From Luteimonas wenzhouensis (GTDB lineage: Bacteria > Pseudomonadota > Gammaproteobacteria > Xanthomonadales > Xanthomonadaceae): 64,000 nucleotides of DNA. This document shows, piece by piece, positions 42,148 through 42,640 of this stretch. The notes beneath the pieces were generated by a model. That model did not search any database and was not told the DNA's origin. It saw only the letters and a program-made list of their open reading frames with translations. The stretch's first letter is position 1. Every line of letters begins with the position of its first letter. The position numbers and the translations under genes were made by a program. The stretch lies in the NCBI RefSeq assembly GCF_007859305.1, contig NZ_VOHE01000001.1, forward strand, positions 186,001-250,000, in the 5' to 3' direction.

Positions 42148-42255
42148 CCGCGACGCGGCCGGGCAGGCCCTGCGGCGAATGTCCCCCGGCATCGGCCCTG
42201 CGGGCCAATGCCTCCTCCTTGATTTCGCCGCAGGGCCTGCCCGGCCACGTCGCGG
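42148..42255 (-). ncRNA. Structured element, copy 1 (unknown class)
   Basis: Read on the minus strand. The outer stem has 32-nt arms (42255-42224 with 42179-42148) paired at 31 positions plus one U-G wobble. Inside are the 5' loop ATCAAGGAGGA (42223-42213), an inner 11-bp hairpin (GGCATTGGCCC / GGGCCGATGCC around GCA) and the 3' loop GGGGGACA (42187-42180). The loops are identical to those of copy 2. Whether it is transcribed is unknown; I label it ncRNA because the mismatches fit RNA pairing. Confidence 0.6.
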
Positions 42256-42548
42256 CTCGGCTCCGGAAGCCCCAGGGGCGAGGCCGGCGGGCGACCGGCG
42301 CCGGCGAGGGCGGCGCATGCCAGGGGATGCGGCGAGAGCATCCGGAGTGCGCGGCCCCACCCGCCTCGATGCACGGCTCCACTATCCCCGCACGGACTAC
42401 AGCAGCCGTCGGGGTCGTTGTCCGCCGACACGAATGAACCGGGGAATCCCGCCGGCCGCCCGGACCCACCGTGGTCATCTCGGGAGCGACTGGCCCGCTG
42501 CCTCCCGAACGTTCCCGCCGCGCACGGAACCGCCCGGATGGATCACGC

Positions 42549-42640
42549 GGGAGCGGGTGCCTCCGGGTGCGAAATCAAGGAGGAGGCGATGGCCGCAGGC
42601 CGTCGCCGGGGGACATTCGCACCCGGGGGTACCCGCTCCC
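42549..42640 (+). ncRNA. Structured element, copy 2 (unknown class)
   Basis: Read on the plus strand. The outer stem has 25-nt arms (42549-42573 with 42616-42640), all paired with two wobbles. The 5' loop ATCAAGGAGGA (42574-42584), a 10-bp inner hairpin (GGCGATGGCC / GGCCGTCGCC around GCA) and the 3' loop GGGGGACA (42608-42615) follow. Its outer stem is unrelated in sequence to copy 1 except next to the loops (GCGAA / TTCGC). Confidence 0.6.

What the first reader, a model, noticed from the sequence alone, without database searches (positions are those of the whole stretch)
42148..42640. Two inverted copies of a structured element with fixed loops, free stems and covariation
Seen directly: copies at 42148-42255 (sense on minus) and 42549-42640 (sense on plus) share GCGAAATCAAGGAGGAGGC and GCCGGGGGACATTCGC but differ in the outer stems (32 and 25 bp) and in the inner hairpin. 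In the inner hairpin, pair 4 is A-U in one copy and G-C in the other, and pair 5 is U-A against A-U, so both covary. All five mismatches across the four stems (one outer and one inner in copy 1, two outer and one inner in copy 2) become G-U wobbles when each copy is read in the sense that shows the shared loops, and would be A-C on the other strand. Inference: selection acts on an RNA (or transiently single-stranded DNA) fold, with the loops as the functional part. The long outer stems could equally be an insertion feature of a small mobile element. I recognise no known class.
Basis: seen in the sequence. Interest (0 to 1): 0.85.

Follow-up and report, generated by a model that had tools for sequence, protein, structure and literature searches.

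The report
Mobile twin hairpins with fixed loop
The two odd hairpins in this window belong to a large, apparently unnamed family of small mobile DNA repeats found in two groups of bacteria; each repeat usually carries two mirror-image hairpins whose stems change freely but stay paired, around an internal loop that hardly changes, so something in the cell probably reads that folded strand.

Summary
Both hairpins are real (z -12.6 and -9.8), lie between zipA and ligA, and belong to a family matched in 34 of 198 sampled genomes of the window's family and 106 of 250 of a second, Burkholderiaceae-like family. In 51 diverse copies the covariation score is 0.84 against 0.19 in shuffles. The internal loop UNAAGG-N-GGAG / CGG-N-GGACA is nearly invariant; its two inner N positions covary (A/G 109, G/A 8, C/G 3 of 120). 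Departures from Watson-Crick pairs in the outer stems are G-U 185 times and A-C 21 times on the loop-sense strand, so a single strand is selected. Copies often form inverted pairs (85 of 88 two-copy clusters face outward; G710 has the opposite order): in one genome an ISL3-type MITE, in Variovorax a ~256-bp unit. Rfam has no match. Whether mRNA or single-stranded DNA is read, and by what, is unproven. BRE, a Betaproteobacteria repeat described in 2011, may be an earlier sighting; I could not test this.

The parts
42148..42255 (-). hairpin copy 1, whole (sense on minus, same direction as zipA and ligA)
   Evidence: R1 match 42151-42252, 99.5 bits
42224..42255 (-). copy 1 outer stem, 5' arm (32 nt)
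42213..42223 (-). copy 1 fixed internal loop, 5' strand AUCAAGGAGGA
42188..42212 (-). copy 1 inner hairpin (11 pairs, GCA loop)
42180..42187 (-). copy 1 fixed internal loop, 3' strand GGGGGACA
42148..42179 (-). copy 1 outer stem, 3' arm (32 nt)
42256..42548 (.). spacer between the two inverted copies (293 bp)
   Evidence: sequence
42549..42640 (+). hairpin copy 2, whole (sense on plus)
   Evidence: R1 match 42545-42644, 102.7 bits
42549..42573 (+). copy 2 outer stem, 5' arm (25 nt)
42574..42584 (+). copy 2 fixed internal loop, 5' strand AUCAAGGAGGA
42585..42607 (+). copy 2 inner hairpin (10 pairs, GCA loop)
42608..42615 (+). copy 2 fixed internal loop, 3' strand GGGGGACA
42616..42640 (+). copy 2 outer stem, 3' arm (25 nt)
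42797..43528 (-). zipA, upstream neighbour (context only)
   Evidence: PF04354 ZipA_C E 3.1e-37
39522..42035 (-). ligA (NAD-dependent DNA ligase), downstream neighbour (context only)
   Evidence: PF01653 E 1e-85 (given as 39522-42032); start codon read by eye

Best explanation
A family of small non-autonomous mobile repeats. The usual unit is two inverted copies of one module: a 25-35 bp outer stem, a fixed purine-rich asymmetric internal loop (UNAAGG-N-GGAG / CGG-N-GGACA) and a short inner hairpin. SHOWN: the module is conserved as a folded single strand (covariation, G-U over A-C, near-invariant loop with a covarying non-Watson-Crick position); the copies mostly come as an inverted pair; the pair recurs at many unrelated sites, and in one genome has terminal repeats and target duplications. 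INFERRED: it works in RNA. Because the two copies are inverted, a transcript entering from either side always carries exactly one sense module, whichever way the unit landed. In that mRNA the long double-stranded stem and the fixed loop form a site for a double-strand RNA-binding protein; RNase III-type cleavage positioned by the loop is the most likely case. This would process the element in host transcripts and make it tolerable at gene ends and inside operons, as described for Correia/NEMIS elements of Neisseria. Spread is by a transposase acting in trans (ISL3-type in one genome; unknown elsewhere).
For: Fold and covariation. Strand asymmetry. Loop near-invariance and position 37/69 covariation. 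Pairing of copies: 85 of 88 two-copy clusters are -+. Mobility: repeated units at many sites of G065 with TIR GGTTCTTC[TG]CCCAA; in the 8 distinct units in which both ends were found (33 loci looked at) the flanking 8-mers agree at 5.4 of 8 positions against 2.6 in shuffles, 0 of 2000 as high. Places where transcription must pass: zipA-ligA, same strand, in the window; in Variovorax between a carboxyltransferase gene and a biotin/lipoyl gene of a 5-oxoprolinase operon (genes that overlap by 4 bp in Bradyrhizobium) and between tauA- and tauB-like genes (155 bp apart in Roseateles, 46 bp in Azospirillum). No U-tract after the stem (0 of 120 copies with 6 or more T in 10) and no terminator-like site at 42030-42800. 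In-place constraint: two Variovorax orthologues differ at 2 of 164 hairpin positions but 13 of 53 spacer positions; at the zipA-ligA locus G832 and G123 differ by two adjacent base pairs changed on both sides. Correia elements in mRNA bind and can be cut by RNase III (passages of PMC2649163; of PMC10969869).
Against: No transcript or protein partner was observed here. Single copies show no preference for the sense of co-directional neighbouring genes (15 sense, 21 antisense), and in convergent gaps they are mostly antisense to the nearer gene (27 against 7), which an mRNA role does not predict, though some of these may be pairs with a missed partner. G-T over A-C and G-A pairs also fit folded ssDNA. 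The spacer divergence of the Variovorax orthologues (13 of 53) exceeds that of the flanks (104 of 2282), so conversion between copies may explain part of the contrast. In G710 four of four pairs face the other way. In G832 one hairpin of the pair has a 3-nt deletion at the loop.
Confidence: 0.42

Rival explanations
1. REPIN-like mobile doublet: the sense hairpin is read as single-stranded DNA (for example on the lagging strand) by an unidentified transposase, and the fixed loop is its recognition structure. Each DNA strand of an inverted pair carries one sense hairpin.
For: Inverted doublets are the main multi-copy arrangement; no orientation bias to co-directional genes; in Variovorax 20 of 30 pairs end in TTC[AG]GGG / CCC[CT]GAA close to the hairpins (7 of 3200 random windows), and the flanks of these 20 show no significant direct repeat of 2-10 bp, as expected of ssDNA transposition; patchy distribution and copy bursts.
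Against: The known REP transposase family does not fit: of 30 PF01797 loci with about 1.5 kb on each side, 18 of them from hairpin-bearing genomes, none has an R1 match; 19 of 22 hairpin-bearing and 13 of 14 hairpin-free genomes have PF01797, and high-copy G169, G185 and G582 do not. The G065 unit has ISL3-type ends with 8-bp duplications outside the hairpins. In-place constraint at fixed loci is not expected if only transposition is selected.
Confidence: 0.3
2. Trans-acting or decoy RNA: the loop is read by a general RNA-binding partner, either the 16S anti-Shine-Dalgarno (AAGGAGG is a perfect complement of CCUCCUU, recalled) or a CsrA-type protein (GGA motifs, recalled), so the copies titrate it.
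For: Loop sequence; 8 to 78 pattern matches per genome in 25 chosen genomes.
Against: Loop position 37 covaries with 69, which points to a structural pair, not a linear binding site; C at 37 breaks the SD complement yet occurs (3 of 120); no sigma-70-type promoter-like site in 42030-42800, though other promoters are not covered.
Confidence: 0.1
3. No function in the host: MITE copies whose arms are kept complementary by template switching between arms (quasipalindrome correction), with the loop conserved only by recent common origin.
For: Two adjacent pairs changed on both sides at once at one locus is what such correction would leave; copies within a genome share stems.
Against: A strand-symmetric mutational process cannot give G-U 185 against A-C 21; the loop is conserved between two bacterial families while stems are not; the non-canonical loop position covaries.
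Confidence: 0.1

Closest known systems
Correia repeat enclosed elements (CREE, NEMIS) of Neisseria
   Same: MITE-type repeats in many copies, stem-forming when in mRNA and acted on by RNase III (passages of PMC2649163)
   Different: The CREE stem is formed by its inverted repeats; here two separate inverted modules, each with a fixed internal loop and freely changing stems. No sequence comparison with CREE was made
REP sequences, REPINs and BIMEs with RAYT transposases
   Same: Intergenic, near gene 3' ends, inverted doublets, hairpins
   Different: REPs are 20-40 bp (search listing of PMC3733652) with a GT(A/G)G head (passages of PMC2817692); here modules of 80-110 nt with a purine internal loop, and no RAYT linkage found
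BRE, Beta-proteobacterial repeat element (Hot et al. 2011, PMC3110155; abstract, section 14 and passages read)
   Same: About 90 bp, GC-rich, usually intergenic, many copies, in Comamonadaceae and Bordetella; one copy lies in a region giving an 80-nt transcript
   Different: Described as highly conserved across the class and as tandem repeats with no or few bases between; hairpins are not mentioned in the main text; no sequence in the main text. Identity could not be tested
ISL3-family insertion sequences and their MITEs
   Same: G065 units share GGTTCTTC-type ends with a 1.3-kb ISL3 element (L106, PF01610 E 1.1e-66) and have 8-bp duplications
   Different: The ISL3 element carries no full hairpin (best match 14.3 bits, E 0.48); Variovorax units have other ends

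Membership tests
REP/REPIN (RAYT-associated) | cognate RAYT (Y1_Tnp) gene flanked by copies of the repeat | tested here: not met
   0 of 30 PF01797 loci (18 from hairpin-bearing genomes) with an R1 match; three high-copy genomes without PF01797
REP/REPIN (RAYT-associated) | 20-40 bp palindrome with GTAG-type head | tested here: not met
   module is 80-110 nt; no such head in the consensus of A1 or A3
REP/REPIN (RAYT-associated) | inverted doublet as the mobile unit | tested here: met
   85 of 88 two-copy clusters -+, but 104 of 192 clusters single by a strict pattern; G710 4 of 4 +-
MITE of ISL3 type | terminal inverted repeats of an ISL3 element and 8-bp target duplication | tested here: inconclusive
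   met in G065 (n = 8); hinted at by eye in some G123 units; not at the window copy (no GGTTCTTC or GAAGAACC in window 41901-42900; nearest G000:C1 matches at 109578 and 247142); Variovorax units have other ends and no duplication
Correia/NEMIS-like RNase III substrate | bound or cut by RNase III in mRNA | not testable with these tools
   stem of median 32 pairs is long enough by general knowledge; no RNA data
BRE (Hot et al. 2011) | sequence identity with B. pertussis Tohama I 3605317-3605401 | not testable with these tools
   sequence not in the main text; no Bordetella record among the named loci and no scan of named genomes left
Any Rfam family | match at or above the gathering score | tested here: not met
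   window and 20 further loci: none; the better sub-threshold matches are microRNA hairpin models
Intrinsic terminator | GC stem followed by U-tract | tested here: not met
   0 of 120 copies with 6 or more T in the 10 nt after the stem; none in 42030-42800

The most novel reading that the evidence does not exclude
The fixed loop is a new nucleic-acid module: eight nearly invariant G in four GG steps (35-36, 38-39, 67-68, 70-71) with the two linker positions 37 and 69 covarying A/G, G/A or C/G. This fits stacked purine pairs or a two-layer G-quadruplex held between two duplexes and capped by the 37-69 pair. It is read by one still unknown protein shared by Burkholderiaceae and Lysobacteraceae, making a self-spreading twin-hairpin system that is neither RAYT-linked nor in Rfam.
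Probability: 0.25. Interest if true: 0.82.

Novelty: new variant of a known kind. Interest (0 to 1): 0.68.

Why it matters
A structured element present in up to tens of copies per genome in a sizeable share of two bacterial families, with very strong covariation and a near-invariant loop, has no Rfam match and no name that my nine paper searches found beyond a possible 2011 sighting. It offers many natural copies for finding the partner: one pull-down or one RNase III mutant would tell whether bacterial MITEs carry a conserved RNA module or a ssDNA transposition signal. The covariance models would let annotators mark intergenic regions that are now open to spurious ORF calls, as in this window.

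Tried and rejected
RAYT linkage: PF01797 in 36 chosen genomes (22 with hairpins, 14 without), then R1 on the 30 returned loci: none carries a hairpin. Rejected as mobiliser as far as tested.

Intrinsic terminator: rejected. Rfam family: none at gathering score; the E 2e-5 mir-3158 match scores 38.7 against a gathering score of 97 and pairs only the long stem.

'Always -+' orientation: held for 85 of 88 two-copy clusters, but G710 has 4 of 4 pairs +-, so I do not claim it as a rule.

Genes between hairpins as cargo: Mrr (L167), a HipA/HTH pair (L169) and an integron-like cassette (L168) lie between copies, but L170 has ordinary genes between two inward-facing copies; cargo is unproven.

Empty site at zipA-ligA: 6 of the 30 loci examined (of 51 genomes with a zipA match, 52 searched) hold copies; I did not align the other gaps with each other, they differ in length from 71 to 853 bp, and I found no clean empty site or duplication for the window copy (one search read some loci in the wrong orientation and was redone).

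Singles test for transcription sense: no bias in co-directional gaps, bias to antisense in convergent gaps; counted against the RNA reading.

'Pairs with a change on both sides' alone does not separate A3 from shuffles well (34 against a mean of 30.5, 4 of 500 as high); the score, the paired cells and the cells changed on both sides do (0 of 500).

Loop invariance is partly ascertainment: copies were fetched with loop patterns and models. A search near known copies for long hairpins by arms alone gave 147 of 186 with the exact motif, 37 with a lax one (by eye many of these are chance or spacer pairings) and 2 without; the copies of a pair are not independent of each other there.

G529 (E 4.9e-5) by its sequence is another palindrome and was not treated as a member, though it is in the 5 of 369. 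Distribution counts are lower bounds: only 10-20 candidates per genome were scored.

Papers: 9 searches; nothing that I saw in the listings or passages describes this fold. That it is unnamed rests on these and on Rfam only. Supplementary files could not be read.

Full report
What is there. Copy 1 (42148-42255, minus) and copy 2 (42549-42640, plus) lie in the 761-bp gap between zipA (42797-43528) and ligA (39522-42035), both on the minus strand. Each is a long outer stem (32 and 25 pairs), an asymmetric internal loop of 11 and 8 nt, and an inner hairpin of 11 or 10 pairs with a GCA loop. MFE z-scores are -12.6 and -9.8; the sense strand is 7.3 and 12.5 kcal/mol more stable than the other. The shared core has no match in 100 shuffles of the window.

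Spread. The exact core occurs three times in the window's genome and in 14 of 198 genomes of its family, with 67 copies in G065 (66 with a longer pattern). A covariance model from 58 copies finds at least 13 copies in the own genome and matches in 34 of 198 family genomes, 7 of 54 genera. In a class-wide sample it matched 5 of 369 genomes, one of them (G529) probably by chance; another, G303, lies in a second family (f108), where a sample of 250 genomes gave 106 with matches, in 71 of 141 genera. A second model from 51 diverse copies of both families matched 11 of 398 genomes across the phylum, all 11 of these two families. A loose pattern gives 8 to 78 matches per genome in 25 genomes chosen for many copies, against 0 or 1 per strand for the reversed pattern. 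Viral contigs held four stretches with the pattern, two confirmed by the model; phage records had no match to the window stretch; among plasmid records one Variovorax pair matched only four large Variovorax replicons.

A folded single strand is selected. In the first alignment 94.2% of pair cells are standard pairs, 32 of 36 pairs change on both sides, and the covariation score is 0.658 against 0.181 in 500 shuffles and at most 0.139 in slid controls. In the diverse alignment the figures are 91.2%, 34 of 35 (shuffle mean 30.5), and 0.837 against 0.186, slid controls at most 0.139. Relatedness inflates such scores, but copies in the diverse set share little beyond the loop (mean column identity 57%). 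With a filter that treats G-T and A-C alike, 138 non-redundant copies have 185 G-U and 21 A-C in outer pairs 9 to 24; 105 copies have more G-U and 4 more A-C; with a stricter redundancy cut (53 copies) it is 72 to 14 and 37 to 3. Counts with filters that favour G-U somewhat gave 83:11, 105:13 and 170:11. A strand-symmetric process cannot give this.

The loop. In 120 non-redundant copies the loop reads U-N-AAGG-N-GGAG on the 5' side and CGG-N-GGACA on the 3' side; apart from the N positions, 3 positions vary, in 1 or 2 copies each. Positions 37 and 69 are A/G in 109, G/A in 8 and C/G in 3; the set of 103 has 89 A/G, 8 G/A, 2 C/G, 2 A/A and 2 with changes in a GG step. The base before U31 is A in 66 copies, of which 64 have Watson-Crick pairs next to the closing pair, and G in 53, of which 26 have tandem A-G/G-A pairs there, 21 another arrangement and 6 Watson-Crick. 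In f108 outer pairs 6 and 8 from the loop are commonly A-G and G-A (41 and 34 of 53). So non-canonical positions covary too. Copies were fetched by loop, so invariance is partly ascertainment (one search is a partial control).

The unit. Of 192 clusters in the loci used, 88 hold two copies: 85 in the order minus-plus, 2 minus-minus, 1 plus-plus; 104 are single by a strict pattern, and some singles have a diverged partner. In G710 four of four pairs are plus-minus. Tandem same-sense copies also occur. Of 163 clusters with enough flank, 18 fell inside a called ORF and 139 could be classed: 55 between convergent genes, 70 co-directional, 14 divergent (intergenic bases in the same loci: 57,742, 118,861 and 34,568); median distance to a gene's 3' end is 62 bp (ORFs called by my own GC-frame script, copies included in the background). 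In G065 the pair sits in a unit with TIR GGTTCTTC[TG]CCCAA; in the 8 distinct units with both ends found, seven of 412-435 bp and one of 231, flanking 8-mers agree at 5.4 of 8 positions against 2.6 in shuffles, 0 of 2000 as high. The same kind of end bounds a 1.3-kb ISL3 element in G028. In Variovorax 20 of 30 pairs end in TTC[AG]GGG / CCC[CT]GAA, 17 of the 20 being 252-263 bp long, against 7 of 3200 random windows with both motifs, with no significant direct repeat at the flanks. The window copy shows neither end.

In place. The zipA-ligA gap holds copies in 6 of 30 loci examined. Between G832 and G123 one hairpin has two adjacent base pairs changed on both sides, and the other has a 3-nt deletion at the loop in G832. 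In two Variovorax replicons the same copy differs at 2 of 164 hairpin positions, 13 of 53 spacer positions and 104 of 2282 flank positions; gene conversion could contribute, because the spacer differs more than the flanks. That copy lies between carboxyltransferase and biotin/lipoyl genes, whose coding matches are about 410 bp apart there and which overlap by 4 bp in Bradyrhizobium; another lies between tauA- and tauB-like genes, about 320 bp apart against 155 bp in Roseateles and 46 bp in Azospirillum.

Mechanism. What is shown stops at: a mobile inverted pair of modules conserved as a folded strand with a fixed loop. I favour RNA, with RNase III-type processing, because copies stand where transcription must pass, lack terminator tails and seem constrained in place. 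The lack of sense bias among singles and the lack of a target duplication in Variovorax speak for the ssDNA reading. RAYT is excluded as far as tested.

What is known. No Rfam match. Correia elements are the nearest in what it works like (passages); REPINs are nearest in layout (listing and passages). BRE is the only candidate for an earlier sighting of the family itself; its size, GC content, hosts and intergenic placing agree, its described tandem layout and class-wide conservation do not, and no sequence was readable.

Noticed in passing
L167 1180-2638 (G769:C12): An Mrr-type restriction endonuclease gene (PF04471 E 5.4e-39, PF14338) lies between two inverted hairpin copies about 1.3 kb apart.
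   Followed up: partly
L169 1278-3422 (G597:C3): A HipA-like gene (PF07804, PF13657) with an HTH gene before it lies between hairpin copies.
   Followed up: partly
L168 1154-2104 (G769:C16): The stretch between two inverted copies looks like an integron gene cassette with attC-like ends (motif recalled, no attC model run).
   Followed up: no
L338 (G194 zipA-ligA gap) and L078 spacer (G000:C14): Another palindrome of the type CCCTCCCCC...GGGGGAGGG is seen at two places in the genus; not related to the hairpins by eye.
   Followed up: no
L106 (G028:C13:78715-80023); G000:C1 end and C8 start: A 1.3-kb ISL3-family insertion sequence; matches to its end sit near contig ends of the window's assembly, perhaps where it broke.
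   Followed up: partly
f108 copies, outer stem pairs 6-8 from the loop: A second recurrent non-canonical motif: A-G and G-A around one pair (41 and 34 of 53 copies).
   Followed up: partly
G710 (L367, L373, L379, L385): In this genome the four pairs face inward (+-) instead of outward, with the same loop and similar spacing.
   Followed up: partly
L008 (G028:C1) and L343 (G824): Same-sense copies about 190-270 bp apart next to a copy of the other sense, with GAACT-type loop starts.
   Followed up: no
G577: Twenty PF01797 matches, four at about 2e-44, as in an IS200/IS605 burst; this genome had no hairpin match.
   Followed up: no
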